Part shown: positions 22,621 through 35,731 of the stretch, in pieces | Numbering within the stretch: position 1 is the first letter of the stretch | Layout of the letters: each line of letters starts with the position of its first letter | NCBI GenBank assembly: GCA_020723855.1 | Contig: DYIB01000023.1 | Location: 1 to 35,731 of the forward strand | Origin: Uliginosibacterium gangwonense | GTDB taxonomy: Bacteria; Pseudomonadota; Gammaproteobacteria; Burkholderiales; Rhodocyclaceae | Direction of reading: 5' to 3' | Length of the DNA: 35,731 nt | Position numbers and translations under genes: made by a program | The notes under the pieces: generated by a model | Seen by the model: the letters and a program-made list of their open reading frames with translations, nothing else | The model's database searches: none | What the model was told of the DNA's origin: nothing

Positions 22621-23238
22621 ATGCGCAGCCCCTTGAAACTCACCGCGCGCCAGGAAGAGATCCTGCATTTCATCCGTGACTGCCTGGAAGAAAACGGTGC
22701 CCCGCCCACCCGCGCCGAGATTTCCGCCGCCTTCGGCTTCAGCTCGCCCAATGCCGCTGAGGAGCATCTGCGCGCCCTGGAGCGCAAGGGGGTGATCCGC
22801 CTGGAGCCGGGCTCGGCCCGGGGCATCCGCCTGGTGGAGCAGCTGGGCCTGCCCCTCATCGGTCACGTGGCCGCGGGCCAGCCCATCCTCGCCGCCGAGC
22901 ACGTGCAGGCCCGCTATCAGCTCGATCCCCATCTGTTCAGCCCGCGCGCCGACTACCTGCTGAGGGTGCGCGGCATGAGCATGCGCGACGCCGGCATCCT
23001 GGACGGCGACCTGCTGGCGGTGCATCGCACCACCCAGGTGAGGAGCGGGCAGATCATCGTCGCCCGCGTCGGCGGCGAGGTCACGGTCAAGCGCCTGCGC
23101 CGCCGGGGCAACAGCAATACCATCGAGCTGCTGCCGGAAAACCCGGATTTCGCGCCCATCGTGGTGGATACCAAGCGCGACCCGGTGGAGATCGAAGGGC
23201 TGGCGGTGGGGCTGATCCGCAACGGGCGGCTGGTGTGA
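22621..23238 (+). CDS. lexA: SOS-response repressor LexA
   Basis: The repressor of DNA-damage genes; RecA filaments trigger its self-cleavage. The 205-residue protein has an N-terminal winged helix ([31 protein letters not shown]), the cleavage bond Ala85-Gly86 (HVAAGQP), nucleophile Ser120 (GMSMRD) and general base Lys157 (TVKRL), all in family spacing. The start at 22621 gives [11 protein letters not shown]; the longer frame reaches back through the promoter and is rejected. It is controlled by the SOS box directly upstream. Confidence 0.97.
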
Positions 23239-23290
23239 TGCAAAGTGCTCCACCTTTCGTCGCTCCTTTGCCAAGTGATATCCTTGCCAG

Positions 23291-23479
23291 ATGAAAGTCA
23301 GCGACTTGCTTCGCCTGCTTCACGCGGATGGCTGGGTGCTCGTCGCCACACGGGGCAGCCACCGACAGTACAAACATCCGACGAAGCCAGGGCGAGTAAC
23401 AGTTCCGGGCAAGCCAAGCGATGATCTCGCTCCAGGCACATTGAACAGCATCCTGAAGCAATCGGCTTTGAAGAAGTGA
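23291..23479 (+). CDS. hicA: HicA-type mRNA interferase toxin
   Basis: A 62-residue double-stranded-RNA-binding-fold toxin that cleaves mRNA during translation. MKVSDLLRLLHADGWVLVAT is followed by the catalytic RGSHRQYKHP with His24, then GRVTVPGKPSDDLAPGTLNSILKQ, all typical of HicA. No strong ribosome-binding site precedes the ATG; a TATCCT only seven bases upstream hints at a leaderless or weakly translated message. It pairs with hicB seven bases downstream. Base composition across the pair looks clearly lower in GC than the flanking genes, which suggests acquisition. Confidence 0.93.
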   Translation: MKVSDLLRLLHADGWVLVATRGSHRQYKHPTKPGRVTVPGKPSDDLAPGTLNSILKQSALKK

Positions 23480-23486
23480 GGTTTAC

Positions 23487-23699
23487 ATGCGTTACGCCAT
23501 CGTAATCGAAAAGGCTGAAGGCAATTACTCCGCCTACGTCCCCGACCTGCCGGGATGTGTCGCGACGGGATCCAGTATCGGGGAAGTCGAGGAGCAGATC
23601 AGAGAGGCTATCGAGTTTCACCTTGAGGGGTTGCGCGAAGACGGCCTCGCGATTCCTCAACCTTCCAGCCAGGTTGAATACATCGAAGTCGCCGCATAG
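23487..23699 (+). CDS. hicB: HicB-type antitoxin
   Basis: A 70-residue antitoxin with the partial RNase-H-like HicB fold: MRYAIVIEKAEGNYSAYVPDLPGC, then an amphipathic helix VEEQIREAIEFHLEGLREDG, ending in VEYIEVAA. It would bind and block HicA. It lacks the C-terminal HTH or ribbon-helix-helix domain of longer HicB proteins, so it may not regulate its own operon by direct DNA binding. A GTGAGG ribosome-binding site overlaps the hicA stop region, favouring coupled and stronger translation of the antitoxin. It is convergent with iorB, 27 bases away. Confidence 0.92.
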   Translation: MRYAIVIEKAEGNYSAYVPDLPGCVATGSSIGEVEEQIREAIEFHLEGLREDGLAIPQPSSQVEYIEVAA

Positions 23700-23726
23700 C
23701 AGCGGCTTCGACTCAGCGCCCGACCA

Positions 23727-25253
23727 TCACCCCTTGCCCGGCCTCTTCATGAACACCAGGGGCTTGACCGTTGCCGGCGCTGCCGGCGACATGGTGGTGC
23801 AGCCCTTTTCTGCGCCCAGAATGCGGCTGCGGGCCTGGCGCAGCTCGCTCTTGAGATAGTCCGCTCCCTTGGCGGCGGCCGCCTCGTTCTCCAGCAAGCC
23901 CTCCAGGATCTGCAGCAAAGCCTGTCGGCCCTTGCCGTGGGTCTCGCCGTAGCCGCGCACCAGCGCCGCGCAGCGGGCGATCTCCAGGGCCAGATCGCGA
24001 TCCAGGGAGGCGAAACCCAGGCGCTTGAGCGCCCCCAGCCAGCGCTCCATCAGGGCCTGCTCCTCGGCGTAGCGGGAGCTGCGCCGGCGCAGCGGCTTGA
24101 GGGCAGCCAGGGCGCGCAGCGCCAGGTAGCCCATGATGCCGCTGCTCTTGAGCTTCAGAGGGAAGGCCGGGACCCGACCGCGCTTGCGTGCCCAGGCGCG
24201 CAGGCGCCGCGCCCAGGCGGAGGGCAGGGAACAGGCCTCCTCCAGCCCGGGCTTGAGGTAATCCACCACCACCACCGGCTGTCCGGGCTGCGCCCCCACT
24301 TCCCGCCGCACCCGTTCCAGACGGCTCGGGCGCGACTTGAGATCGGCCACGCGGATGACATCCTCATAGCTCATCCACAAGGCCAGCAGGCGCGCCGTCT
24401 CGCGCGTCAGGGCGAAGCCGTCGGCCTCGCCGCCCGCCTCCCGGTCCACCGCCAGCACTGCCCGCACCCGGTCCAGGTACAGGGCGGCATAGGCCTCGTC
24501 CTGGTAGTCAGCCAGCCGCGCCGCGGCCAGCTCCAGCAGTTCGTGGAGGGCGGGCGGGAACTCGCGCCGGATGCGCTCGACACGGGGCGGCCGCCGCTTG
24601 GCCTTGGCCGCCGGGGCCGTCGCCGTCTTGCCGACGGCCAGGGCCAGCCCCGCGGCGAAACCGCGCAGATTGGCTTCCGCCCCCTTGGCCGTCTTGCGCA
24701 TCGCCGCTTCGCAATGCTCCCGCGACAAGGGCAGCACGCCGGCGCCGCATAGGGCGCCGAACAGCACGGCATTGATGAGGGCGCCCGATTCCCGTGCCGC
24801 GGCCGAGAAATCCGTCAGGATGGCGCGCTTGGCCAGGGTGCGCGCCGCCGCCAGGATCTTGTCGCTGTCGTAGCGCTGGTCGGCCGCCGTCATCTTCTCC
24901 TGGACCGCATATACCCGGTGGGTCGAGGCGATCAGGGTGGTGCGGCCGGTCACGTAGCCGTTCTGCAGGGCGCGGCCAGCTTCCACCAGTTCGGATGCCA
25001 CCACCACGTCCACGCCGTCGGCACAGGGCACCAGCGCCAGGACCGGCTGGCGCCCGCCCAGGTCGGCGAACTTGACGGGATGGATCTCCAGGTAATAGGT
25101 GGTGGCGCCGGTGCGCTGGGACACGCCGGGAATCGAGGTGCTCTGCACCGGGTAGCCGGCGGTGCTGGCCGCCTCCACCAGCCATTCGGCCAGCACGCCG
25201 CCGCCCTCGCCGCCCAGAGCAGCGATGAGGATGGTGATGGGTGCGCCGCTCAT
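23727..25253 (-). CDS. iorB: Indolepyruvate/arylpyruvate oxidoreductase beta subunit, long form
   Basis: The small catalytic partner of IorA in oxidative decarboxylation of arylpyruvates to arylacetyl-CoA. The first 200 residues are the 2-oxoacid oxidoreductase gamma/beta domain (ITILIAALGGEGGGVLAEWL, VPCADGVDVVVASEL, INAVLFGALCGAGVLP). They are followed by about 300 residues (FPPALHELLELAAARL, YLKPGLEEACSLP, SSGIMGYLALRALAALKPL) that are absent from archaeal IorB and match the long proteobacterial type with an extra uncharacterised domain. The ATG overlaps the iorA stop by four bases; the open frame further upstream is a shadow of iorA. It is the last gene of the pad-ior cluster and convergent with hicAB. 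Confidence 0.88.
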   Translation of the reverse strand: MSGAPITILIAALGGEGGGVLAEWLVEAASTAGYPVQSTSIPGVSQRTGATTYYLEIHPVKFADLGGRQPVLALVPCADGVDVVVASELVEAGRALQNGYVTGRTTLIASTHRVYAVQEKMTAADQRYDSDKILAAARTLAKRAILTDFSAAARESGALINAVLFGALCGAGVLPLSREHCEAAMRKTAKGAEANLRGFAAGLALAVGKTATAPAAKAKRRPPRVERIRREFPPALHELLELAAARLADYQDEAYAALYLDRVRAVLAVDREAGGEADGFALTRETARLLALWMSYEDVIRVADLKSRPSRLERVRREVGAQPGQPVVVVDYLKPGLEEACSLPSAWARRLRAWARKRGRVPAFPLKLKSSGIMGYLALRALAALKPLRRRSSRYAEEQALMERWLGALKRLGFASLDRDLALEIARCAALVRGYGETHGKGRQALLQILEGLLENEAAAAKGADYLKSELRQARSRILGAEKGCTTMSPAAPATVKPLVFMKRPGKG

Positions 25254-27373
25254 GCTTTCGCCTCCCGCGCCAGCAGCGCCACCACGCCGCGGCGCAGCCG
25301 GTCCACGAAGCGGTCGCGCCAGGCCGGGTTCTGGATGACCTCGGCGTGGAAGAAGGACGGGCACAGGGAGGCGGCATGGGCCGCCTCGCCGCACAGGCCG
25401 CAGCCGACGCAGCCGGCATCCACCGTGGTCACCGGCTCGGTGCGCAGGGGATCCGGGTTGTCCTTGACGGTGAGCGAAGGACAGCCCGACAGGCGGATGC
25501 AGGATCGGTCGCCGGTGCACACGTCTTCGTCGATGCCGAAGCGCGTGCGCACCGTGCGCTCGCCGCGGGCCAGCCGCAGGGCCCTGGCCGGGCGCTCGCG
25601 GCGCTGGCGCTCCAGCATGCATTCGCCGTCGGCGATGATCACCTTCAAGCCGCCTTCAGGAGTGGTCATGGCGCGGCGCAGGGCATCCGCCACGGCGCTC
25701 ACCTGGTAGTTGCCCACCCGCTCCAGCCAGCGCACGCCCAGGCCGCGCAGCGCGCTCTCGATGGCGATGCCACGCTCGATCCCGGGCGAGGACGGTATGT
25801 TCTGGGTGCCGGTGGCCGAGGTGTAGCCGTTCTGCATGATGACCAGCACGCCGTCGTCGCCGCGGAACAGGGCGTTGGCCACGCCGGTGGTCAGCCCGTT
25901 GTGCCAGAAGCCGCCGTCGCCCATCACCGTCACCACGCGCTTGGCCATGTTGGGCCCGACGCCGGCCGCCGCCGCCAGGGACAGGCCGTAGCCGAGCACG
26001 GTGTTGCCCAGATTGAAGGGCGGCAGGGTGGAGAAGGTATGGCAGCCGATGTCGGAGCTGATGTGGAAGCCGCCCAGTTCCTTCTCCATGAGCTTGAGCG
26101 CGGTGAACACCGGCCGCTCGGGACAGCCCACGCAGAAGCCCGGCGGCCGCGTCGGCACCGGTGCGCCCAGCAGTTCGGCGGCCCTGGCCTTGGCGCCCTC
26201 CACCCGGGCCAGGGTCTGGGCCACGCCCTCCAGGTCGATGCCGTCGGGCATGACCAGTTGCAGGAACCGGCCGATGCCGCCCAGCACCACTTCGGCGGTG
26301 TATTCCCCCGCCAGGGGCAGCAGATCCTTGCCCACCACGTGGGTGCGGTCGATGTCGGCGCGGCGCAGGATGGCGTTGATCGCCTCCTCGATGTGCGCCG
26401 GCTGGCCCTCCTCCACCACCAGCACGGCGCGCTTGGTGGCGCAGAACCCGGTCAGCTCCTCGGGCACCAGGGGATAGGTGACGTTGAGCACGTAGAGCGG
26501 CACGCGGGTTGCGCCGAAATCATCCGCCAGGCCCAGATGGCGTAGCGCCCGCACCACGGTGTTGTACATGCCACCCTGGAGGATGATGCCGATGTCGCGC
26601 AGGTCGCCGTCGAAGAACTCGTTGAGCTTGTGGCGGCGGATGAATTTCTGCGCCGCCGGCCAGCGCACCTCCACCTTGTGCTTCTCCTGGACGTAGGTGG
26701 ACGGCGGCAAGGCGATGCGCTCGTAGCTGAAGTCCGGCTGCACCAGCGGGTCGCGGCGCGAGTGGGCCGGCCGGCGGTTGTCCTTGCACTGGAAGCGGCC
26801 ATGGACGTGGCAGGCGCGGATGCGCAGCTCCAGCATGACCGGAGTATTGGAGGCTTCCGACAGCTCGAAGCCCTGCTCCACCAGGCGCACGATGGTCGGC
26901 AGGTCCGGCCGCGGGTCGAGCAGCCACATCTGGGACTTCATGGCGAAGGAGTGGCTGCGCTCCTGGATGATGGAGGCGCCCTCGCCGTAGTCCTCGCCCA
27001 CGATCACCAGCACGCCCCCCTTGACGCCGGCCGAGGACAGGTTGGACAGGGCGTCCGAGGCCACGTTGGTGCCCACCACCGACTTCCAGGTGGCGGCGCC
27101 GCGCAGGGGGTAGTTGATGGAGGCGCCCAGCAGGGCAGCGGCGCCCGCCTCGTTGGCGCAGGCCTCGAAGTGTACGCCCAGCTCGTCGAGCACCTCGCGC
27201 GCGTCCGCCAGCACGTCCATGAGATGGGATACGGGCGCGCCCTGGTAGCCGCCCACGTAGGACACGCCGGACTGCAGCAGGGCCTTGGTCACGGCCAGGA
27301 TGCCCTCGCCGTGGAAAGTTTCGCCGTCGCCCAGGCGCAGCTTGGCGACCTGTTCTTTGAAGGAGCGTTCCAT
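25250..27373 (-). CDS. iorA: Indolepyruvate/arylpyruvate:ferredoxin oxidoreductase alpha subunit
   Basis: A TPP- and Fe-S-containing 2-oxoacid:ferredoxin oxidoreductase of 707 residues that, with IorB, converts arylpyruvate plus CoA to arylacetyl-CoA, CO2 and reduced ferredoxin. The pyrimidine-binding half is N-terminal (YVGGYQGAPVSHLMDVL, CANEAGAAALLGASI). The TPP-binding half has CVGCPERPVFTAL and VTVMGDGGFWHNGLTTGVANAL with the TPP metal motif GDG..N. The C-terminal ferredoxin module has DVCTGDRSCIRLSGCPSL and CVGCGLCGEAAHAASLCPSF. The substrate could be indolepyruvate, phenylpyruvate or hydroxyphenylpyruvate; the adjacent phenylacetyl-CoA pathway argues for phenylpyruvate. It starts 85 bases after padI, separated by a strong palindrome. 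Confidence 0.93.
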   Translation of the reverse strand: MERSFKEQVAKLRLGDGETFHGEGILAVTKALLQSGVSYVGGYQGAPVSHLMDVLADAREVLDELGVHFEACANEAGAAALLGASINYPLRGAATWKSVVGTNVASDALSNLSSAGVKGGVLVIVGEDYGEGASIIQERSHSFAMKSQMWLLDPRPDLPTIVRLVEQGFELSEASNTPVMLELRIRACHVHGRFQCKDNRRPAHSRRDPLVQPDFSYERIALPPSTYVQEKHKVEVRWPAAQKFIRRHKLNEFFDGDLRDIGIILQGGMYNTVVRALRHLGLADDFGATRVPLYVLNVTYPLVPEELTGFCATKRAVLVVEEGQPAHIEEAINAILRRADIDRTHVVGKDLLPLAGEYTAEVVLGGIGRFLQLVMPDGIDLEGVAQTLARVEGAKARAAELLGAPVPTRPPGFCVGCPERPVFTALKLMEKELGGFHISSDIGCHTFSTLPPFNLGNTVLGYGLSLAAAAGVGPNMAKRVVTVMGDGGFWHNGLTTGVANALFRGDDGVLVIMQNGYTSATGTQNIPSSPGIERGIAIESALRGLGVRWLERVGNYQVSAVADALRRAMTTPEGGLKVIIADGECMLERQRRERPARALRLARGERTVRTRFGIDEDVCTGDRSCIRLSGCPSLTVKDNPDPLRTEPVTTVDAGCVGCGLCGEAAHAASLCPSFFHAEVIQNPAWRDRFVDRLRRGVVALLAREAKA

Positions 27374-27409
27374 AGTCTCTGTTGGGTTTGTTATGCGCTG
27401 TCGCTGGAG

Positions 27410-27461
27410 GAGCGGCTTGCCCGGGCTTGCCCGCGCCCGATCGCGGGCAAGCCCGCTCCTA
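27410..27461. repeat. REP-like palindrome between padI and iorA
   Basis: A perfect 13-bp stem, GGGCTTGCCCGCG (27423-27435) and CGCGGGCAAGCCC (27442-27454), encloses a six-base loop. The flank GGAGCGG before it repeats the first arm in part (GGCTTGCCC), and GCTCCTAC follows it. The motif GGAGCGGGCTTGCCCGCG is like the REP palindromes of pseudomonads and relatives. It includes the padI stop codon (27459-27461). There is no T-run, so it is a mobile-type repeat or mRNA-stabilising hairpin rather than a classical terminator. Confidence 0.85.
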
Positions 27462-28790
27462 CATGGCAGGCAGCCTGGCGCTGCCGTCCGCCAGGCCGCG
27501 GATGAAGGCGACCTGGTGGTCGACGCCCGCCTGGATGTGGGCCACCTGCTCCGGTGACAGATGGCGGTACTTGCCCTGGGCCTCCAGATATTCGCGCAAG
27601 GGACGGGGTTTGTCCACGGGATGCGTCAGGCGCAGGCCGTCGCGCGGATTGAATTCCCACAGCAGGACGAAGTTCGTCTCCACCGCCTTGCGCGCCACCT
27701 CGATGTTCTTCCGGGATGGGAAACGCCAGCCGGTGGTGCATGGGGAATAGAGGTGCAGGTAGGCGAAGCCGCGCCTGGAGGCGTCCAGGGCCTTCTCCAG
27801 CTTCTCGTAGAAGTCCTCCATGAAGGCGGTGGAGGCCGTGGCCACGTACTCGCAGTTGTGCATCATCATGATCACCGGCAGGTTCTTGGCGTCCTGAGAC
27901 TTGCCCTTGCCCCGCTCGCCCACCGGCGTGGTGGAGGTCCACGCGCCGTAGGGCGTGCAGCTCGAGCGCTGCATGCCGGTGTTCATGTAGCCCTCGTTGT
28001 CTACGCACACGAACAGGATTTGCTCGCCCCGTTCCGCCGCGCCCGACAGAGACTGGAAGCCCACGTCTGAGGCGCCGCCGTCGCCCGCCAGGGCCAGCGC
28101 CGTCACCTCGCGCCCCCGGCGCTTGTAGTAGCGCTTGACGCCGGCGAGCATGGACGCGGTGTTGGTGAGCAGGGGGTGGAATACGGGCACCTTGGTGCCG
28201 GTCAGCCCGTTGTAACCCACCGAGCCCATGCCGGGAATGCAACCGGGCGGCGTGGCCAGCACCGTGTCCGGGCCGACGCGGCGCAGGGTGTGGCGCATGA
28301 TCAGCTCGGTGTTGCAGCCCTGGCAGCCGGCGAGTCCCGGCACGAACAGATCCTCCAGGGCGCCCACCTCGTTGTAGATCCTGGCGGTGGTGACATACTT
28401 CAGGGCGCCGCGGCCGCAGGCCTTGACGCAGGCCGGGTCGCCGCCGCAGGTGTCGCACTTCACCACGTGGCCGCGGGCGGCATTGTAGGCAATGCCGCCG
28501 TAGGCGCAGCCCACGGTGCACAGCAGGCAGTTCACACACTTGTCCCCGTCCCACTCGATGGTGCCCGTCTCCTCGTTCTTGGAGAGGGCGGCGGCCGGGC
28601 AGTTGGCGACGCATTTGGGGTCGCCGCACTGGCGGCACAGGGCCAGCTCGAAGCGCCCCCGGTCCGGCACGATCTGGATGCGGGAATCGGCCAGCGTCTC
28701 GCCGCCCTTGGCGTCGCCGCAGGCTTGCATGCAGGCGTTGCAGCCGTCGCACAGCTCCGGCTTGAAGGCGATGGTGCTATAGGCTCCCAT
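27459..28790 (-). CDS. padI: Phenylglyoxylate:NAD+ oxidoreductase, TPP-binding beta subunit with ferredoxin domain
   Basis: A catalytic subunit that would bind thiamine pyrophosphate in CoA-dependent oxidative decarboxylation of phenylglyoxylate to benzoyl-CoA. The first 160 residues are a polyferredoxin: CDGCNACMQAC from Cys14, CRQCGDPKCVANCP, CVNCLLCTVGC and CDTCGGDPACVKAC, enough for four [4Fe-4S] clusters. The rest is a pyruvate-oxidoreductase beta fold: GCQGCNTELIMRHTLRRVGP, then the TPP motif from LAGDGGASDVGFQSLSGAAE to CVDNEGYMNTG, and a SSCTPYGAWTSTTPVG loop. The fusion and its place after padH match PadI of Azoarcus-type clusters. GGAGGT upstream overlaps the padH stop, coupling the two. 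A pyruvate-type oxidoreductase is the alternative, disfavoured by context. Confidence 0.88.
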   Translation of the reverse strand: MGAYSTIAFKPELCDGCNACMQACGDAKGGETLADSRIQIVPDRGRFELALCRQCGDPKCVANCPAAALSKNEETGTIEWDGDKCVNCLLCTVGCAYGGIAYNAARGHVVKCDTCGGDPACVKACGRGALKYVTTARIYNEVGALEDLFVPGLAGCQGCNTELIMRHTLRRVGPDTVLATPPGCIPGMGSVGYNGLTGTKVPVFHPLLTNTASMLAGVKRYYKRRGREVTALALAGDGGASDVGFQSLSGAAERGEQILFVCVDNEGYMNTGMQRSSCTPYGAWTSTTPVGERGKGKSQDAKNLPVIMMMHNCEYVATASTAFMEDFYEKLEKALDASRRGFAYLHLYSPCTTGWRFPSRKNIEVARKAVETNFVLLWEFNPRDGLRLTHPVDKPRPLREYLEAQGKYRHLSPEQVAHIQAGVDHQVAFIRGLADGSARLPAM

Positions 28791-28795
28791 GGGGC

Positions 28796-30049
28796 TTACC
28801 TCCACAGGCGCGACATGAGGGCGCGGGCCGTCTCCTGGGGCCGCACCAGGAAGTCGGTTTTCACCGGGCCGAGGTCCACGCGGCGCAGCACCAGTTCCCA
28901 CATCACGCCTGGATCGAAGGCGGCGTTGATGCCGAAGATGCCCAGCAGCCGGTCGTCCTTGAGCACCACCTTGAGATGGCGGCACCCGTCGGGATCGGTT
29001 TCGGCATACACCTCGGCGCCGTCCACGCCCTGCTCCTGGATGCCCACGGACACGGCGCGCTGGCCGAAGAAGGTATAGGTGTTGAGGGGCACGCCGCCGG
29101 GATAGGGCCGCAGTCCCGGATCGCCCGCCATGGCCATGCCCGCCACCCGGCCCTGCTCCACCGCGTTGGGCAGGATGCCATTGACCGTTCTGGCGTCGCT
29201 GTAGAAGCTGCGCGCCTGGGCCACGTCCCCCGCCGCCCAGATGTTGTCTACGCTGGTGCGCATGGTGTCGTCCACCAGCACGCCCCGATCCACCTCCACT
29301 CCGGTGCCCGCCAGGAAGTCCGTGACCGGGGCCACCCCCACGCCCACCAGCAGCAGATCGGCGGCGATGGTCTCGCCCGCCTCCAGGCACACGGTGCAGC
29401 CGCTGCCCGCCGGCTCCACCCGCACTACCTTGTGCCCGGTGAGCAGCATCACCCCGCGCTTGCGGAAGGCGCTCTCGATGATGGCCGCCGCCTGGGCGTC
29501 GAAATAGCCGGGCAGCACGTGGGGCTGCATCTCCACCACGGTCACCGCCGCGCCGGTCTTGGCCAGGTTCTCCGCCGCATGCATGCCCACCAGGCCCGCG
29601 CCCAGCACCACCGCCTGGCGCGCCCGCCCCAGGGCGCTCTTCAGGGCCAGGGCATCGTCCAGGGTACGCAGCACGTGGAAGCGGCTGTCGCGCAGCCCCG
29701 GGATGGGCGGCACCACGGGCGCGGCGCCCGTGGCCACCAGCAGCTTGCGGTAGGCGATGGTGCGCCCGTCGGCGAGATGCGCCCGGCTGCCGGCACCGTC
29801 CACCGCCGCCACCGCCGCACCGCGCAGCAGCTCGGCGCGGCTGCGGGCGAAATAGTCCTCGTTCTTGAGGAACACGCGCTGGGGCTGGGAGCGGCCGGAC
29901 ACCACGTAGGGCAGCACCGTGGGCGAGTACGGCAGGCAGTCGTCGCGGGTCACCAGGGTGATGCCGCCGTCTGCGTCGTGCATGCGTATGGCATTGAGCG
30001 CCGACAGGGCGGCGTGGCTGGCGCCCAGGATCAGGTAGTCGGTGTGCAT
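28796..30049 (-). CDS. padH: Phenylglyoxylate:NAD+ oxidoreductase, FAD/NADH-binding subunit
   Basis: A 417-residue pyridine nucleotide-disulfide-oxidoreductase-fold flavoprotein that would pass electrons from the Fe-S/TPP core to NAD+. The FAD-binding N-terminus YLILGASHAALSALNAIR is at 5-22, the NAD-binding VVLGAGLVGMHAAENLAKTG near 147, and the second FAD motif NIWAAGDVAQA near 270. There is no redox-active CxxxxC disulfide, as expected for an NADH dehydrogenase-like electron-transfer subunit. It lies between padG and padI with gaps of ten and five bases. The presence of this subunit is what distinguishes a NAD-linked phenylglyoxylate enzyme from ordinary ferredoxin-linked 2-oxoacid oxidoreductases. 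Confidence 0.88.
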   Translation of the reverse strand: MHTDYLILGASHAALSALNAIRMHDADGGITLVTRDDCLPYSPTVLPYVVSGRSQPQRVFLKNEDYFARSRAELLRGAAVAAVDGAGSRAHLADGRTIAYRKLLVATGAAPVVPPIPGLRDSRFHVLRTLDDALALKSALGRARQAVVLGAGLVGMHAAENLAKTGAAVTVVEMQPHVLPGYFDAQAAAIIESAFRKRGVMLLTGHKVVRVEPAGSGCTVCLEAGETIAADLLLVGVGVAPVTDFLAGTGVEVDRGVLVDDTMRTSVDNIWAAGDVAQARSFYSDARTVNGILPNAVEQGRVAGMAMAGDPGLRPYPGGVPLNTYTFFGQRAVSVGIQEQGVDGAEVYAETDPDGCRHLKVVLKDDRLLGIFGINAAFDPGVMWELVLRRVDLGPVKTDFLVRPQETARALMSRLWR

Positions 30050-30059
30050 GCCGTTCCTC

Positions 30060-31283
30060 TCAATCGTTTTCGTTGAGCCACACGGTCTCGCCCGGCTGCC
30101 CGTCCTGGGCTAGCCGGGCGGTGCGCTCGATGACCCGGTGGAAGTGGTCCACCGTCAGGTCCGCCCCCGCCAGGCCGCCGATGAAGCTCATGGCCGGGAT
30201 GCGCCGCAGCGCGCCGCTGAGGGCCGCGAGCGCGTCCTGATACAGAGGCCCGCCATTCCAGCCGAAGCTGACGCTGCGGTCCACCACGCCCACCGCCTGC
30301 ACACCCGCCAGGGCCTCGACCACGGCGCGCACCGGGAACGGCCGGTAGGTCTTCACCTTCACCAGCCCCACCTTGCGCCCCTGGCTGCGCGCCTCGTCCA
30401 CCGCGTCCTTGGCCGCCCCGGTCATGGAACCCAATGTCATGATTGCGTACTCGGCGTCGTCCATGCGGTAGCGCTCCACCAGCCCGGCATGGCGCCGGCC
30501 GAAGCGGGCCGCCCAGTCCTCATGCACTTCCTCGATCACGCGCAAGGCGTTCTGCATGCCGCGGCAATGGCCTTTGCGGTACTTCACGAACATCCGGGGG
30601 CCCGGCCCGCCGGCGCCGCCGGTGAGGGGGTCCACCGCCATGGGCCGCTCCGGATCCAGGGCCGCGTGCCAGTTCACGCTGGGCGGGCCGAGGAATTCCC
30701 GTGTCGCCGCGCCATCGGGCAGCTCGACCCGGGCGGCGCCGTAGGACAGGTAGTTGCCGTCGTGGCACACGTTGACCGGCAGCATCACGTCCCGGTGCTC
30801 GGCGATGCGGTAGGCCATGATGGTGGTGTCCAGCACTTCCTGCACCGTCTCGCAGTACATCTGGATCCAGCCCACCTCGCGCACCGACATGGCGTCCTGG
30901 TGCCCGCCCCACACGCTCTGGGGCGTCAGGGTGTCGCGGGTGACGATGCCCATGACCATGGGCAGGCGTAGCCCCGGGGTGCGGATGTAAGGTTCGAACA
31001 TGAAGGCCAGCCCCGGGCCGCAGGTGGCCGTGTAGACGCGCGCGCCGGCCAGCGCCCCGCCCTGCAGCACCGACAGGACGCTGTGCTCGCCCTCCACGTC
31101 CACGATCTCGGCGTCGAGCTTGCCCTCGGCGACGAACTTGGCCAGGTACTCCACCAGGGACGACTGGGGCGTGATGGGATAGACGGCCACCATGTCCACG
31201 CTCGCCAGGGTGACGCCCCAGGCGGCCGCCTCGTTGCCGTCGCACACGACGATCTTGGGCTTGGCTTCGGTCACGGCGCTCAT
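30060..31283 (-). CDS. padG: Phenylglyoxylate:NAD+ oxidoreductase alpha subunit
   Basis: The alpha (pyrimidine-binding) subunit of a 2-oxoacid oxidoreductase, 407 residues. Landmarks are VVCDGNEAAAWGVTLASVDM, the conserved VYPITPQSSLVEYLAKF near 35, the glutamate-containing VDVEGEHSVLSVLQGGALAG near 63, TATCGPGLAFMFEP near 87, and the domain II/III region with MTLGSMTGAAKDAVDEAR near 285 and KVKTYRPFPVRAV. It should form the active site together with PadI. It follows padF after a 76-base gap containing two hairpins, the only sizeable gap inside the EFGHI block. Confidence 0.9.
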   Translation of the reverse strand: MSAVTEAKPKIVVCDGNEAAAWGVTLASVDMVAVYPITPQSSLVEYLAKFVAEGKLDAEIVDVEGEHSVLSVLQGGALAGARVYTATCGPGLAFMFEPYIRTPGLRLPMVMGIVTRDTLTPQSVWGGHQDAMSVREVGWIQMYCETVQEVLDTTIMAYRIAEHRDVMLPVNVCHDGNYLSYGAARVELPDGAATREFLGPPSVNWHAALDPERPMAVDPLTGGAGGPGPRMFVKYRKGHCRGMQNALRVIEEVHEDWAARFGRRHAGLVERYRMDDAEYAIMTLGSMTGAAKDAVDEARSQGRKVGLVKVKTYRPFPVRAVVEALAGVQAVGVVDRSVSFGWNGGPLYQDALAALSGALRRIPAMSFIGGLAGADLTVDHFHRVIERTARLAQDGQPGETVWLNEND

Positions 31284-31322
31284 GGTTGGCCCCCGGCGCT
31301 TCGCGCCAACCCCCCACGGGGG
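31284..31322. repeat. Inverted repeats immediately upstream of padG
   Basis: GGTTGGC (31284-31290) pairs with GCCAACC (31305-31311) around a GC-rich loop containing GGCGCTTCGC. Next to it, CCCCC (31311-31315) pairs with the G-run ending at 31322 around ACG. On the coding strand the hairpins directly abut the padG ATG and would occlude its ribosome-binding site. A GGCGCGAAGCGCC-centred palindrome of this kind is recalled as an intergenic repeat in related genomes, but that recollection is unverified. Confidence 0.6.
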
Positions 31323-31359
31323 TATGAGCGCATCTTGAGGCGGCTCTGCGATGCGTTCA

Positions 31360-31650
31360 TCATGCGGCCTCCGGTACCATGGTGATCGCCCGGTGCGGGC
31401 ATTCCTGGGCGCAGATGCCGCAGCCCTTGCAGGTGGCCAGGTCGAAGTCGAACCAGGCGGGCTTTTCCACGACGCACTGCACCGGACAGTAGAGCCAGCA
31501 CACGGCGCACTTCACGCACTTGGCCCGGTCCACCACCGGCCGCAGGCTGCGCCAGTCGCCGGGCAGCATGGGGTTGGGCCTGGTGGCGATGGGACAGAGG
31601 TCGTCCGGGACGTTGCTGGTATCGAAGAAGGGTTTCGCTTGTTTGATCAT
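31360..31650 (-). CDS. padF: Phenylglyoxylate:NAD+ oxidoreductase delta (ferredoxin-like) subunit
   Basis: A 96-residue 2x[4Fe-4S] ferredoxin-type subunit: CVKCAVCWLYCPVQC from about residue 44 and CKGCGICAQECPH from about 74. It is preceded by an N-terminal extension (FFDTSNVPDDLCPIATRPN, then PMLPGDWRSLRPVVD) typical of delta subunits of pyruvate and 2-ketoisovalerate oxidoreductases. It carries electrons between the TPP site and the other clusters. Its ATG overlaps the padE stop by four bases, so it is coupled to it. Confidence 0.9.
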   Translation of the reverse strand: MIKQAKPFFDTSNVPDDLCPIATRPNPMLPGDWRSLRPVVDRAKCVKCAVCWLYCPVQCVVEKPAWFDFDLATCKGCGICAQECPHRAITMVPEAA

Positions 31651-32219
31651 GCGAGCTCCTGGCGGGCCAGAGTGTGCACCTGCGTGCCCTCATACCCCCG
31701 CTCCAGCGCCTCCAGGTTCTGCTGCAGGCCGGCGTCGCGGAAGTCCGATTCGCGCACCGCGTGGCGCAGGGCTTCCAGGGATACCAGGCCCGTGGTGCGG
31801 GCAAGCGCGCCGAGCATGATAGTGTTGGTGATGGGCCGCTTGAAGATGTCCAGGGCAATGGCCACCGCATCGCACAGACCCACGGTCTTCACCTGCTCCG
31901 ACAGGCGCAGCTCCTCCAGGCCCTTGGCGGTGGTCTGCACCAGCACGCCGTCGTCGCGCAGGCCCTCGAAGATGTTGACGGCGCGCGCCACCGTGGGATC
32001 GATGCACACGACGCAGTTGGGTCGGTAGATGTTGGTCATCTGCCGGATCTCGCGCTCGTCGCAGCGCAGGTAGGTCGCCACCGGCGCGCCGCGGCGCTCG
32101 AAGCCGAAGGACGGCACGGCCACCACGAACTTGCCCTCGGCCACCAGCGCCGCCGCCAGCATGCTGCCCATGAGGACGGCCCCCTGGCCGCCGCGCCCGT
32201 GGATGCGTACTTCATACAT
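31647..32219 (-). CDS. padE: Phenylglyoxylate:NAD+ oxidoreductase gamma subunit
   Basis: The gamma subunit of the 2-oxoacid oxidoreductase superfamily, 190 residues, with the CoA-binding-domain signature MYEVRIHGRGGQGAVLMGSM at the N-terminus, SFGFERRGAPVATYLR near 37, and TNTIMLGALARTTGLV near 130. It is preceded by GGAGGTAAGCC, in which the ribosome-binding site overlaps the padD stop codon, and it overlaps padF at its end. It is the first gene of the EFGHI enzyme set and is physically tied to the upstream padBCD genes. Confidence 0.9.
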   Translation of the reverse strand: MYEVRIHGRGGQGAVLMGSMLAAALVAEGKFVVAVPSFGFERRGAPVATYLRCDEREIRQMTNIYRPNCVVCIDPTVARAVNIFEGLRDDGVLVQTTAKGLEELRLSEQVKTVGLCDAVAIALDIFKRPITNTIMLGALARTTGLVSLEALRHAVRESDFRDAGLQQNLEALERGYEGTQVHTLARQELA

Positions 32220-32222
32220 GGC

Positions 32223-33095
32223 TTACCTCCATCCCGGCTTGGTGCCGGGCTGCGGGACGCCGCTGCCCCGGATGGGCAGGCGCGGCAGCGCGAAGCCCTG
32301 GTTGTAGGCCGCCCGGGTGACGATGACATACTTGAGCGCCCAGCCGGCCAGGGCGGCAATGAGGCCGCCCAGCGCCGCGAACCAGGGAGAGCCGCCCAGC
32401 GCCGCCGTGGCCAGCAGCAGCGCCGGCAGCAGATTGCCGGCGAACAGGAAGGGCTTGTCGAAGCGGCCATAGACCTGCAGCGTCTTCACCGGCGCGCCGG
32501 TGGCGGCGAGCTGGTTGAGGTAGCTGCGCCAGGCGACGACCCGGGACAACAGCAGGAGGAAACCGGCGGCGGCAAAGGCGCGCAGGCTCAAGCCGCCCGC
32601 CGCCGCCAGCAGCAGCATCCAACCCGCCCCTTCCGCCAGGCCGGTGGTGACGATCAGGGGCACGATGCGCCCCTGGCGCCAGGCGGGGATGCCCTTGGCC
32701 GCCTGCAGAATGCGCCCCTGGGCATAGAGGAAGGCCATCCCGAACAGCGCCGCCAGCCAGGTCCAGGCGCCGCCGAAGGCGAGCGCCGCCAGGCCGGCGG
32801 CGAACAGCACGGGTGCGATCATGGCCTCCCGGGACATCCACGAGGTTTGCGGATGGAAGAACACGTGCAGCGCCCGCCAGGGCTTGCCGATCTCCAGCCA
32901 GACGCAGGTGAGTCCCAGGGCGACCAAGGCCAGGCCCAGCGCCACGGCCGCCCGATAGTCCATGCCGGCGGCGGCGGCCAGGGCGGCGAACAGCACCAGC
33001 CCGGTGCCGGAACCGCCGCCGATGAAGTTGCCGGCGGCGCGGGCATCCCAGTTGGTCTGGTGCCAGGGGGCGGGGGTGAATACCTTAGCTTTCAT
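32223..33095 (-). CDS. padD: Phenylacetyl-CoA dehydrogenase membrane anchor subunit (DmsC/NrfD-like)
   Basis: A 290-residue integral membrane protein with about eight hydrophobic segments, for example GTGLVLFAALAAAAGM near 30, AVALGLALVALGLTCVW near 50 and FLFAGNLLPALLLATAALGG near 225. It resembles DmsC/NrfD-type quinone-reactive anchors (WDARAAGNFIGGGSGTGLVL, LEIGKPWRALHVFFHPQTSW). It would anchor PadBC and transfer electrons from phenylacetyl-CoA oxidation to the quinone pool. It follows padC after a 206-base gap filled by repeats and is three bases from padE. Anchor families evolve fast, so the assignment relies on context as well as sequence. Confidence 0.85.
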   Translation of the reverse strand: MKAKVFTPAPWHQTNWDARAAGNFIGGGSGTGLVLFAALAAAAGMDYRAAVALGLALVALGLTCVWLEIGKPWRALHVFFHPQTSWMSREAMIAPVLFAAGLAALAFGGAWTWLAALFGMAFLYAQGRILQAAKGIPAWRQGRIVPLIVTTGLAEGAGWMLLLAAAGGLSLRAFAAAGFLLLLSRVVAWRSYLNQLAATGAPVKTLQVYGRFDKPFLFAGNLLPALLLATAALGGSPWFAALGGLIAALAGWALKYVIVTRAAYNQGFALPRLPIRGSGVPQPGTKPGWR

Positions 33096-33138
33096 GATGA
33101 GAAACCCTGTTTAACCGTTCATCCTGAAAACCGCACTT

Positions 33139-33270
33139 AACGCAAAGGACGCGAAGGAACGCAAAGGACGCAAAGGACGCAAAGGAAAATCCCTGAAGGA
33201 TGGCCGACACCCAAAGGGTGAGAGGCTGTGGATCCTTCTTTGCGGCCTCTGCGTCTTTGCGATCTTTGCG
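33139..33270. repeat. Tandem and inverted ACGCAAAGG repeats in the padC-padD gap
   Basis: Five near-identical units of ACGCAAAGG run head to tail at 33140-33185; the second unit is variant, with G for A and one extra base. Three copies of the reverse motif CTTTGCG occur at 33238-33244, 33255-33261 and 33264-33270, allowing a long imperfect hairpin. Between the arms lies a small perfect hairpin CACCC-AAA-GGGTG at 33208-33220. This is the only gap over 100 bases inside the pad cluster. No open reading frame of its own is credible. CGCAAAG-type repeats are recalled as dispersed intergenic elements in environmental proteobacteria. Confidence 0.85.
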
Positions 33271-33301
33271 TCGAAGGCGGTTCCAACTGCGGTTTCAAGG
33301 T

Positions 33302-33949
33302 TCATTTCCGGTCCCAGATGTAGTACACGCCCGGATCGGTGCCCAGCTCCTCGTGCATGCGGAAGTGCCGGGTCTCGGCCAGCAACTGCGACACGTTGCT
33401 GCCGGGATCGTCCCGGTCGCCGAAGGCCAGCGCCCCGGCGATGCAGGCGTTCACGCAGGCGGGCGTCACCTCCGGGTCCACACCCGGCGTGAGGCCCTGC
33501 TCCGCGGCAGCGTCGATGCGGCCGATGCAGAAGCTGCACTTGGTGGCCACCGCCAGGCGCTTGTCGTCGAAGCGCGCCGCCTCGGACCGGGTCGGCTGCT
33601 CTCCGTAGGAGAACTCGGCCCGGTGGCTGATGTAGCGGGCCTGGTAGGGGCAGGCGACGGCGCAATAGCCGCAGCCGATGCACAAGTCGTAGTCGATGCC
33701 CACCAGCCCGTCGTCGCGCCGGTAGGTGGCGGTGGACGGGCACACCTCCATGCAGGGCGGATTGGCGCAGTGCATGCAGCCCACGGGCACGAAACTGCGG
33801 CGCACGTCCGGGAACTCGCCCGATTCGATGTCCAGCACGCGCCGCCACTGCACGCCGGGGGGCGTGGCGTTGGCGTGGCGGCAGGCGGCGGTACAGGTCT
33901 GGCAGCCGACGCAACGACGCAGGTCCACGGTCATGATGTAGCGCGTCAT
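33302..33949 (-). CDS. padC: Phenylacetyl-CoA dehydrogenase iron-sulfur subunit
   Basis: A DmsB/PsrB-type electron-transfer subunit of 215 residues with four cysteine groups for [4Fe-4S] clusters: RCVGCQTCTAACRHAN from Cys13, CMHCANPPCMEVCPS, CIGCGYCAVACPYQAR, and the group made of KCSFCIGRI plus CVNACIAGAL. It links the molybdopterin subunit PadB to the membrane subunit PadD. No signal peptide is present, so export would depend on PadB if the complex is periplasmic. The ATG overlaps the padB stop (ATGA). A much longer frame upstream is an out-of-frame shadow of padB. Confidence 0.92.
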   Translation of the reverse strand: MTRYIMTVDLRRCVGCQTCTAACRHANATPPGVQWRRVLDIESGEFPDVRRSFVPVGCMHCANPPCMEVCPSTATYRRDDGLVGIDYDLCIGCGYCAVACPYQARYISHRAEFSYGEQPTRSEAARFDDKRLAVATKCSFCIGRIDAAAEQGLTPGVDPEVTPACVNACIAGALAFGDRDDPGSNVSQLLAETRHFRMHEELGTDPGVYYIWDRK

Positions 33950-35730
33950 AGCTTGCGCACCCCCACTCGCACCAGGTCCGCGCTGGAACCGGTGGCATCG
34001 GTCAGATCCATGGACATGGGCACCAGGCCGTTCATGCTCGGCGCCTTCATGTCTTTGGCATATGGTGTCACCCAGTGGTCGAACTGTCCCAGCATGAGCA
34101 GCGTGTCGGGCCGGATGCCCTGGCGCAGCACCGCCGGCCCCTGGGTGGTGCCCAGGTAGGAGCGTACTTCCACCATGTCCCCCTCCTCGATGCCCAGCTC
34201 GCGCGCCCGCTGGCTGTTGATCACCACGCCCCGGTGGCCGCGCAGGTTGCCCGCCACCTCGTCCATGAGCTGGATGCTCACGTTGCTGCCCCAGGCGTAC
34301 TGCATGCTGCGCGAGGTCACCAGCCAGAAAGGATAGTCGTCCAGGGAGCCGGCGTGCTTGAGGGTCTCTCTTTCCCAGATGCCGGGAAAATCCTTCACCG
34401 CCGGCAGCGCCTGGTACTCGGTGAGCTGGACGTCCCACCAGGTGATGCCGCGCTCGTGCAGGCGGTTGCCCAGCTCCACGCCGGTGCGCAGCAGGCGCTC
34501 TTGGTAGGGCATCTCGAAGCGGATGCCCTGCTTCTTCAGCTCCGGGAACAGATACCAGGACAGGCGCGCAATGGGCCGCGTGCGGTAGCCGTTCTCGCGG
34601 AACCAGTCGAGGCCGTCGCTTTCCTTGCCGCCGGTGATCTCGGCGCTGGCGCTGCGGCACACCCGGTCCCAGATGGTGTGCGCGTCGTGCTTCTGCTTGG
34701 GGTCCAGGCCGAAGTTGTACAGCCCATTGACCAGCGGCACGCCGGCGGCGCCCCGGTTGATGGCTTCGTTGTAGCGCTCCAGCAGGCCGGTGCGCGCCGC
34801 CAGTTCCGTGGCGATGTCGGTGAAGTCGCGCGTCTCGCCCGCCGGCTTCACCGCCGGCTGGCGCAGGGCGAAGCCCTCGTGGTCCCAGAACTGCTCGATG
34901 AACTTGCTGCCGCCGATGCGGATGAGTTGCAAGCTCTCGATGTCGGTGCACTCGGGCAGCAGGATGTCCGCCATGTGGTTGGTCTCGTCGCGGGTATAGG
35001 CGAAGGCAACCACGAAGGGAAACTCGGCGATGCGTTCGGCGATGGCCTTGGTGTCCCAGAAGGAAATGCTCGGGTTGGTGCGGTAGCAGAACCAGATATC
35101 CGGCGCCGTCACCTTGGGCCACTGGTCCGGCGACTCCTTGCGGAACATCCAGGCGAGATGGGTGGGGCCCAGTGCCGTGCTCCAGGGCGAGTCGGCCGAC
35201 AGGGGCACCAGGGTGTCGTGGGCGTTGCGCACCCGCGGGCGCGGCGACCAGTGCTCCTTGTCGGTAGGGTTCATGGGGTAATGCATGAAGCCGTCGTCGT
35301 TGGGGCGCACGCTGGCCTGGCGCGAGGTGGCGGGACGGTTCAGGCGAACCGTGGTGCCCAGGGTGCCGCCCGGCACTTCCAGGGCGCCCACCAGGCAGGC
35401 GAGCAGGGTGCGCGCCCAGCAGCACTCGTAGCCGCCCCAGCCGTTGGTGACGGTCTTGCCCATGGCGATGGCCACGGGCCGGAAGGGCAGCACCTCGCCC
35501 TCGATCTCCACGGTCGCGCCCACCTGGGCATGCTCCAGGAACTCGCCGGCGATGCGCCGCACCGTGCCTTCCCGCACGTCGCACACGCCCTCGGCCCACT
35601 CGGGCGTGTAGGGCCGCATGTGGGCCACCAGCCGGGCGAAGGCGGTCTGGGCGGCGATACCCTGGTGCTGCCACTCCTGCCCGTCGGCGCCCACCTCCAG
35701 GGCATCGACGGTGAAGTTGCCCTCCAGGGC
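33946..35730 (-). CDS. padB: Phenylacetyl-CoA dehydrogenase molybdopterin catalytic subunit, C-terminal part
   Basis: About 594 C-terminal residues of a DMSO-reductase-family molybdoenzyme; the frame runs off the window end, so the N-terminus, [4Fe-4S] motif, molybdenum ligand and any twin-arginine signal are not visible. Seen are EGNFTVDALEVGADG at the edge, a cofactor-binding region (VAIAMGKTVTNGWGGYECCW, TRDETNHMADILLPECTDIES), and the C-terminal molydopterin dinucleotide-binding domain (GHRGVVINSQRARELGIEEG, DMVEVRS). The family oxidises phenylacetyl-CoA to phenylglyoxylate with water as oxygen source. The specific name rests on the complete B-C-D-E-F-G-H-I gene order; from this fragment alone it could be any polysulfide/tetrathionate-type oxidoreductase. 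Confidence 0.85.
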   Translation of the reverse strand, partial: ALEGNFTVDALEVGADGQEWQHQGIAAQTAFARLVAHMRPYTPEWAEGVCDVREGTVRRIAGEFLEHAQVGATVEIEGEVLPFRPVAIAMGKTVTNGWGGYECCWARTLLACLVGALEVPGGTLGTTVRLNRPATSRQASVRPNDDGFMHYPMNPTDKEHWSPRPRVRNAHDTLVPLSADSPWSTALGPTHLAWMFRKESPDQWPKVTAPDIWFCYRTNPSISFWDTKAIAERIAEFPFVVAFAYTRDETNHMADILLPECTDIESLQLIRIGGSKFIEQFWDHEGFALRQPAVKPAGETRDFTDIATELAARTGLLERYNEAINRGAAGVPLVNGLYNFGLDPKQKHDAHTIWDRVCRSASAEITGGKESDGLDWFRENGYRTRPIARLSWYLFPELKKQGIRFEMPYQERLLRTGVELGNRLHERGITWWDVQLTEYQALPAVKDFPGIWERETLKHAGSLDDYPFWLVTSRSMQYAWGSNVSIQLMDEVAGNLRGHRGVVINSQRARELGIEEGDMVEVRSYLGTTQGPAVLRQGIRPDTLLMLGQFDHWVTPYAKDMKAPSMNGLVPMSMDLTDATGSSADLVRVGVRKL

Positions 35731-35731
35731 C

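What the first reader, a model, noticed from the sequence alone, without database searches (positions are those of the whole stretch)
23727..35731. Phenylacetyl-CoA (pad) cluster joined directly to iorAB: a possible one-operon route from phenylpyruvate to benzoyl-CoA
Ten same-strand genes with mostly overlapping starts encode PadBCD, PadEFGHI and IorAB. From the known families, IorAB would make phenylacetyl-CoA from phenylpyruvate, PadBCD would oxidise it to phenylglyoxylate, and PadEFGHI would give benzoyl-CoA. In the classical cluster, as recalled, a phenylacetate-CoA ligase (padJ) follows padI; here iorAB does instead. If no ligase exists nearby, the ATP-consuming activation of free phenylacetate is bypassed, with energy kept as reduced ferredoxin, quinol and NADH.
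Basis: partly seen in the sequence, partly recalled or inferred. Interest (0 to 1): 0.7.

Follow-up and report, generated by a model that had tools for sequence, protein, structure and literature searches.

The report
Phenylacetate-degradation operon with extra oxidoreductase

Summary
The ten genes are real: padB (cut by the contig end), padCDEFGHI, iorA, iorB, one strand, ending at convergent lexA. PadE-I pass all five NCBIfam equivalog cut-offs. iorAB follows padI in 12 of 80 related loci, iorBA in 6; 36 have the classical padJ.

The ligase bypass is not supported: padB's missing start lies on another contig, beside a divergent phenylacetate-CoA ligase, and 18 of 18 pad-ior genomes searched have such a ligase (13 over cut-off).

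The phenylpyruvate assignment is doubtful. IorA scores 261 bits against a canonical cut-off of 651; a near-canonical IorAB lies elsewhere in the genome. Relatives in the sister branch sit beside isatin hydrolase or salicylyl-CoA hydroxylase (13 of 17 rows), two in its own branch beside mandelate-dehydrogenase-like genes, suggesting arylglyoxylates. In three split genomes iorBA stays with the phenylglyoxylate half. Against this: Aromatoleum-type phenylpyruvate decarboxylase occurs in 0 of 13 iorAB but 20 of 29 padJ genomes (one clade contrast), and isatin contexts are absent from the pad-linked branch.

Best reading: a ferredoxin-type arylglyoxylate oxidoreductase added to PadEFGHI; no biochemistry. 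The phenylpyruvate-IorAB route itself is in print for other bacteria.

The parts
33946..35731 (-). padB, molybdenum catalytic subunit of phenylacetyl-CoA:acceptor oxidoreductase, C-terminal 594 residues; its start lies on contig C29
33302..33949 (-). padC, 4Fe-4S subunit, 215 aa
32223..33095 (-). padD, third subunit (membrane subunit by recalled family knowledge), 290 aa
   Evidence: homology and order; no NCBIfam match
31647..32219 (-). padE, phenylglyoxylate dehydrogenase gamma
   Evidence: NF045762 322.4/300 bits
31360..31650 (-). padF, phenylglyoxylate dehydrogenase delta
   Evidence: NF045763 162.3/150 bits
30060..31283 (-). padG, phenylglyoxylate dehydrogenase alpha
   Evidence: NF045764 750.5/700 bits
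28796..30049 (-). padH, phenylglyoxylate dehydrogenase epsilon
   Evidence: NF045765 636.3/475 bits
27459..28790 (-). padI, phenylglyoxylate dehydrogenase beta
   Evidence: NF045766 832.5/700 bits
27374..27458 (-). 85-bp padI-iorA gap with a strong palindrome of a dispersed REP-like repeat (the 22-base unit reaches into the end of padI, 27441-27462)
   Evidence: fold -38.6 kcal/mol, z -3.16; 6 copies in the genome, this one included, at up to 2 mismatches, 0 of the reversed control; no terminator-like site here
25250..27373 (-). iorA-like alpha subunit, 707 aa, TPP domain; seven C-terminal cysteines present in 31 of 31 aligned rows
23727..25253 (-). iorB-like beta subunit, 508 aa, POR domain plus DUF6537
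   Evidence: PRK08312 530/348 bits; Pfam PF01558 and PF20169
22528..23238 (+). lexA, converges on the operon and marks its end
   Evidence: Pfam LexA_DNA_bind and Peptidase_S24

Best explanation
An anaerobic phenylacetate operon of a recurrent second type. A ligase beside padB supplies phenylacetyl-CoA; PadBCD oxidises it to phenylglyoxylate; PadEFGHI converts that to benzoyl-CoA with NADH. The extra IorAB belongs to a two-subunit, DUF6537-bearing family that is named IOR by default and most likely oxidises arylglyoxylates to aroyl-CoA. Here it would act on phenylglyoxylate (or a ring-substituted one), beside PadEFGHI, passing electrons to ferredoxin, which the ATP-dependent benzoyl-CoA reductase encoded in this genome would use. 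Shown: genes, order, recurrence, ligase and reductase genes, relatives' neighbourhoods. Inferred: substrate, electron acceptor, co-transcription, adjacency of contigs C29 and C87. Pad reactions follow from established knowledge of the families.
For: IorA is far under the canonical IOR cut-off (261.4 against 650.9 bits; IorB 47.9 against 205.8), while a near-canonical pair lies on C104 (IorA 641 against 650.9, IorB 279.2 against 237), 25% identical to the window's IorA. Of 14 plasmid relatives fetched (of 50 records; two are near copies from Sulfitobacter, and some marker queries were taken from members of the set), 7 have an isatin-hydrolase homologue in the fetched stretch, 3 a salicylyl-CoA 5-hydroxylase homologue, 9 at least one. 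Three such cyclase genes match solved isatin hydrolases at 518, 258 and 431 bits. Isatinate is an arylglyoxylate (established chemistry). Two further relatives, L228 and L233, have a mandelate-dehydrogenase-like FMN enzyme and fall in the same major branch as both pad-linked groups. In three iorBA genomes padBCD with a ligase was found on another contig than padEFGHI-iorBA (L242, L243, L247), so iorBA goes with the phenylglyoxylate half. Four of 5 iorBA genomes have phenylpyruvate decarboxylase as well (one barely over cut-off and in two pieces). bzdN, bzdO and bzdQ are present.
Against: The strongest context, isatin hydrolase or salicylyl-CoA hydroxylase, is confined to the sister branch of the IorA tree: 13 of 17 rows there, none of the 27 fetched loci of the branch that holds the pad-linked rows, so the inference crosses the deepest split. 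The FMN enzymes beside L228 and L233 are assigned by family only; L228's scores slightly higher with an L-lactate oxidase than with mandelate dehydrogenase. PadEFGHI already does this step. Phenylpyruvate decarboxylase is over cut-off in 0 of 13 iorAB genomes and 20 of 29 padJ genomes, which suits the phenylpyruvate reading, though it is one clade contrast (1 independent pair). The plasmid relatives were hand-picked. iadAB is outside the nine-gene region that restored IAA degradation to anthranilate in Variovorax (passages of preprint PMC12633357). A canonical IorAB was looked for in this genome only. No assay exists.
Confidence: 0.47

Rival explanations
1. One reading: IorAB makes phenylacetyl-CoA from phenylpyruvate and replaces the decarboxylase-aldehyde route of Aromatoleum, while the ligase serves free phenylacetate.
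For: Phenylpyruvate decarboxylase (TIGR03394 over cut-off) in 0 of 13 iorAB genomes against 20 of 29 padJ genomes. Such IorAB activity is stated for A. aromaticum EbN1 (passage of PMC9765128) and suggested by proteomics in D. multivorans (passages of PMC5109826). The product feeds PadBCD in the same operon. Isatin contexts are absent from the pad-linked branch.
Against: IorA is of another subfamily than the canonical enzyme, a near-canonical pair lies elsewhere in this genome, relatives sit in isatin or mandelate-like contexts, and iorBA is separated from padBCD in three genomes. The decarboxylase contrast is one clade.
Confidence: 0.35
2. Ligase-free, ATP-saving one-operon route as written by the first reader.
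For: padJ is not after padI.
Against: Ligase beside padB on contig C29; a TIGR02155 ligase match in 18 of 18 pad-ior genomes searched, 13 over cut-off and the other five at 607-617 bits against 646.3; divergent ligase on the same contig in 6 of the 8 iorAB loci whose stretch reaches at least 1.5 kb past the pad genes.
Confidence: 0.04
3. IorAB is a neighbour of unrelated function (another 2-oxoacid) that shares only the location.
For: The gap is 85 bp with a REP-like hairpin and in relatives varies from about 99 to 2748 bp, so co-transcription is unproved.
Against: Two IorA branches with opposite gene orders both follow padI.
Confidence: 0.13

Closest known systems
padBCDEFGHIJ cluster of Aromatoleum and Thauera
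   Same: padB to padI in the same order; PadI 72-73% identical
   Different: padJ follows padI there; here iorAB does, and the ligase is upstream of padB on the other strand, on a separate contig
Canonical indolepyruvate:ferredoxin oxidoreductase IorAB (TIGR03336, TIGR03334)
   Same: TPP-dependent 2-oxoacid oxidoreductase superfamily; alpha subunit with C-terminal Fe-S-type cysteines; POR-domain beta subunit
   Different: 261 and 48 bits against cut-offs of 650.9 and 205.8; beta subunit carries DUF6537; different spacing of the first cysteine group from the C104 copy
IadA/IadB (IotA/IorB) of aerobic auxin-degrading iad loci
   Same: relatives with IorA 55-60% identical and a 500-aa IorB lie beside Rieske, MarR, isatin hydrolase or salicylyl-CoA hydroxylase genes; iad-like loci are reported to carry such a pair (passages of PMC9613470)
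   Different: context is isatin and anthranilate, not phenylglyoxylate, and they lie in the sister branch; that these loci are iad loci is my reading of gene content

Membership tests
Phenylglyoxylate dehydrogenase PadEFGHI | five subunits over NCBIfam equivalog cut-offs | tested here: met
   5 of 5
Classical padBCDEFGHIJ cluster | padJ directly after padI | tested here: not met
   iorAB there
Ligase-free phenylpyruvate route | no phenylacetate-CoA ligase nearby | tested here: not met
Canonical IorAB | alpha and beta over TIGR03336 and TIGR03334 cut-offs | tested here: not met
   261.4/650.9 and 47.9/205.8
IorB family PRK08312 with DUF6537 | beta subunit over the subfamily cut-off and DUF6537 present | tested here: met
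   530/348; PF20169
2-oxoacid oxidoreductase with TPP and Fe-S clusters | TPP domain and conserved cluster cysteines | tested here: met
   PF02775; C619, C625, C631, C655, C658, C661, C671 in 31 of 31 rows; that they bind clusters is inferred
Arylglyoxylate oxidoreductase | activity on phenylglyoxylate or isatinate with CoA | not testable with these tools
   only neighbourhood evidence
Single transcription unit padB-iorB | co-transcription across 27374-27458 | tested here: inconclusive
   no minus-strand terminator-like site between padB and iorB, one after iorB at 23390-23378, hairpin in the gap

The most novel reading that the evidence does not exclude
The whole two-subunit DUF6537 'IorAB' family, now named indolepyruvate oxidoreductase, is a family of arylglyoxylate:ferredoxin oxidoreductases forming aroyl-CoA (isatinate to 2-aminobenzoyl-CoA in auxin and isatin degraders, phenylglyoxylate to benzoyl-CoA in mandelate and pad clusters). 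In this operon two distantly related enzymes would do the same step with NAD and with ferredoxin, the second one charging ferredoxin for benzoyl-CoA reductase, and the linkage to padI arose at least twice.
Probability: 0.33. Interest if true: 0.68.

Novelty: new variant of a known kind. Interest (0 to 1): 0.48.

Why it matters
It shows a second, recurrent layout of the anaerobic phenylacetate cluster in betaproteobacteria, and corrects a ligase-free reading that a contig break suggested. If the arylglyoxylate reading holds, a family found in aerobes and anaerobes is misnamed, an auxin-degradation gene pair (iadAB) to which the passages I saw assign no reaction gets a predicted one, and one operon would choose between NADH and ferredoxin at the last step before ring reduction. 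One enzyme assay decides it.

Tried and rejected
Rejected: ligase-free bypass. Rejected: chance adjacency. Tried without deciding: promoter and terminator scan of 23200-35731 (0 promoter-like sites; 3 terminator-like against a shuffled mean of 5.0). Tried: decarboxylase presence as a proxy for the phenylpyruvate route; Fisher's test gives p = 2.3e-5 but there is only 1 phylogenetically independent pair, so it is not used as proof. Tried: solved structures for IorA, none at E 0.001, so pocket residues were not compared. Structure prediction was not run. The PadI tree has weak deep branches.

Papers: the ten searches of the PMC library were used. I saw passages only, of PMC9765128, PMC2907700, PMC8402940, PMC5109826, PMC13285125, PMC6365646 (its iorAB is another enzyme), PMC9007349, PMC9613470, PMC12633357, PMC8383072 and PMC13290082; the rest in listings. 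None of what I saw describes iorAB beside padI, but most subscription papers are not held, so absence from print is not claimed.

Selection and dropped rows: the 80 loci are the best 80 of 184. Searches covered 33, 16, 18, 7 and 41 genomes chosen by me. In the decarboxylase count L131 (330.8 bits, partial) counts as absent, L099 (556.9, second piece 299.8) as present, and L084 (iorA 7.8 kb from padI; no match) is left out of the 13 but is among the 18 genomes. L174_3, L185_3689 and L184_126 were dropped from the first IorA tree; the second kept earlier rows over 500 aa, without L158, and kept the partial L241. In one search the label isatin_iad_like was put on L230, L236 and L239, which lack both markers, and not on L234, L240 and L241, which have one; the recount replaces it.
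Full report
The observation. The window is the whole of contig C87 (35731 bases) of a 3.12 Mb, 155-contig genome, 84% complete. On the minus strand, padB (cut), padC, padD, padE, padF, padG, padH, padI, iorA and iorB run from 35731 to 23727. PadE, F, G, H and I each pass their NCBIfam equivalog cut-off. lexA converges from the other side, so the run ends at iorB. Three of nine junctions overlap, three have 3-10 bp, three have 76, 85 and 206 bp.

The ligase. A PadB start of 295 residues lies at the edge of contig C29 in the same genome: against the 914-aa PadB of locus L076 it covers residues 6-298, and the window's part covers 314-910, so about 15 residues are missing between the contigs. The contigs were not joined; their adjacency is inferred from this fit. 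On C29 an FlK-type thioesterase gene (940-1338) precedes padB on padB's strand, and on the other strand, its open frame starting 601 bp from the start of padB, lies a phenylacetate-CoA ligase (TIGR02155, 733.7 against 646.3 bits); beyond it are a ferredoxin, korB- and korA-like genes and an aldehyde oxidoreductase fused to a ThiS/MoaD domain. A second ligase homologue is on C123 (69% to PadJ, 77% to the C29 ligase; not scored with TIGR02155). In relatives the ligase is on the same contig, on the opposite strand upstream of the first pad gene, in 6 of the 8 iorAB loci whose stretch reaches at least 1.5 kb past the pad genes (L074, L076, L077, L082, L083, L085; not L080, L089). TIGR02155 matches in 18 of 18 pad-ior genomes (13 of the iorAB kind, L084 with a distant iorA included, all over cut-off; 5 of the iorBA kind at 607-617 bits). 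Activation by a ligase is therefore not bypassed for want of one.

How common the layout is. A scan of one genome per species with PadI gave 184 relatives, of which the best 80 were kept. Within 3 kb after padI: padJ in 36, iorAB in 12, iorBA in 6 (5 genomes), reversed padJ in 1, none of these in 19, contig edge in 6; no locus has both padJ and ior genes after padI. On the PadI tree the padJ loci and the ior loci lie on different sides, with weak support at the base. On the IorA tree the iorAB-linked rows and the iorBA-linked rows are separate branches (97/99 for 12 rows: the window, ten linked rows and L205, on a short contig of a genome whose pad contig ends after padI; 88/89 with three Oxalobacteraceae rows added; 100/92 for five iorBA rows). 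With the opposite gene orders this suggests two linkages to padI.

What IorAB is. The window's IorA scores 261.4 bits against the canonical model (cut-off 650.9) and its IorB 47.9 (cut-off 205.8), but IorB passes PRK08312 (530 against 348) and carries DUF6537. The genome has a near-canonical pair on C104: IorA 641 bits, just under its cut-off, and IorB 279.2 against 237. The two IorA are 25% identical. A fused IOR-family protein is on C120. Seven C-terminal cysteines are present in 31 of 31 aligned rows, so the protein looks active; the GDG motif at 485 is in the window but not all its letters are invariant.

What relatives do. A search of plasmids with IorA gave 50 records; I fetched 14, hand-picked. 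In the fetched stretches 7 of 14 have an isatin-hydrolase homologue, 3 of 14 a salicylyl-CoA 5-hydroxylase homologue, 9 of 14 at least one; 2 of 14 have a mandelate-dehydrogenase-like FMN enzyme; 3 have none of these. The marker queries came from members of the set (L237, L228) and from L198 and L191, and L237 and L241 are near copies. Three cyclase genes match solved isatin hydrolases at 518, 258 and 431 bits. Isatin hydrolase makes isatinate, which is 2-aminophenylglyoxylate (established chemistry). The iad auxin loci carry iotA/iorB genes as exclusive markers and pass through isatinic acid (passages of PMC9613470); [quoted passage not shown] Among the 80 pad loci, an isatin-hydrolase homologue occurs in one (L108, no ior gene there) and the salicylyl-CoA enzyme in none.

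The limit of that argument. On the wider IorA tree (47 rows) the isatin or salicylyl-CoA markers occur with 13 of the 17 rows of one branch and with none of the 27 fetched loci of the other, which holds both pad-linked groups. In that second branch only L228 and L233 support an arylglyoxylate reading, through FMN enzymes of the mandelate-dehydrogenase family; L228's scores 317 bits with an L-lactate oxidase and 302 with (S)-mandelate dehydrogenase, and has a mandelate-racemase-family gene nearby.

Where iorBA goes when the pathway is split. In iorBA loci no padBCD was found beside padEFGHI. PadB is elsewhere in the three iorBA genomes; L242, L243 and L247 show padBCD with a ligase on one contig, other than the iorBA contig, and L244 shows padB alone near a contig end. 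The enzyme thus stays with the phenylglyoxylate half. Four of five iorBA genomes also carry the phenylpyruvate decarboxylase, one of them barely over cut-off and in two pieces.

Evidence the other way. That decarboxylase (TIGR03394) is over cut-off in 0 of 13 iorAB genomes (the window's included) and in 20 of 29 padJ genomes. This is what one expects if IorAB replaces it, but the contrast is one clade against another (one independent pair), and many genomes are incomplete MAGs. The phenylpyruvate route by IorAB is stated for EbN1 (passage of PMC9765128) and suggested for D. multivorans (passages of PMC5109826); whether those IorAB belong to the window's subfamily I could not test. IORs of archaea act on phenyl-, hydroxyphenyl- and indolepyruvate (passage of PMC13285125).

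Downstream. The genome encodes bzdN, bzdO, bzdQ over cut-offs and a further activase-family subunit, with oah and had over cut-offs, an ATP-dependent benzoyl-CoA reductase of the class that uses ferredoxin (recalled). A ferredoxin-reducing oxidation just before it would be energetically apt; this is inference.

Co-transcription. The padI-iorA gap contains a dispersed palindrome (6 copies in the genome with up to 2 mismatches, 0 control hits) folding at -38.6 kcal/mol; no minus-strand terminator-like site was found between padB and iorB, and one lies after iorB (23390-23378). In relatives the gap runs from about 99 to 2748 bp. One transcript is plausible, not shown.

Verdict. Confirmed arrangement, a recurrent variant of the known pad cluster; ligase bypass rejected; IorAB somewhat more likely an arylglyoxylate than an arylpyruvate enzyme (0.47 against 0.35).

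Noticed in passing
window 33096-33301: The padC-padD gap holds short repeats and what looks by eye like an inverted copy (CGCAAAGACGC-type; sequence), another dispersed-repeat-like element inside the operon.
   Followed up: no
L154 6357-8681 (own contig C29): Aldehyde:ferredoxin oxidoreductase fused to a C-terminal ThiS/MoaD domain, beside korAB and the ligase; a similar order recurs in L195 and L206, with ligase and thioesterase swapped.
   Followed up: partly
L082, L083, L084, L089, L090: padC and padD are kept beside padEFGHI but the padB homologue found lies elsewhere in the genome (60-62% identical).
   Followed up: partly
L225 3136-5728 (own contig C65): A second benzoyl-CoA-reductase-like gene set whose B and C subunits score well under the cut-offs (213 and 299 bits), next to two activase-family matches; substrate unknown.
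   Followed up: partly
L202 9632-15568 and L203 5532-11219: Two different iorA genes beside a single iorB, from two branches of the IorA tree.
   Followed up: no
L194 (second iorAB of the L076 genome): A non-pad iorAB lies beside genes resembling AorABC (25-35% matches to AOR, PadI's ferredoxin part and PadH; the AorABC comparison is recalled).
   Followed up: no
L108: A pad locus without ior genes that carries an isatin-hydrolase homologue.
   Followed up: no
window 1-22500: Housekeeping genes: mfd, DAHP synthase, an isc cluster with an Rrf2 regulator, hscA and hscB, cysE, trmJ, mutS.
   Followed up: no
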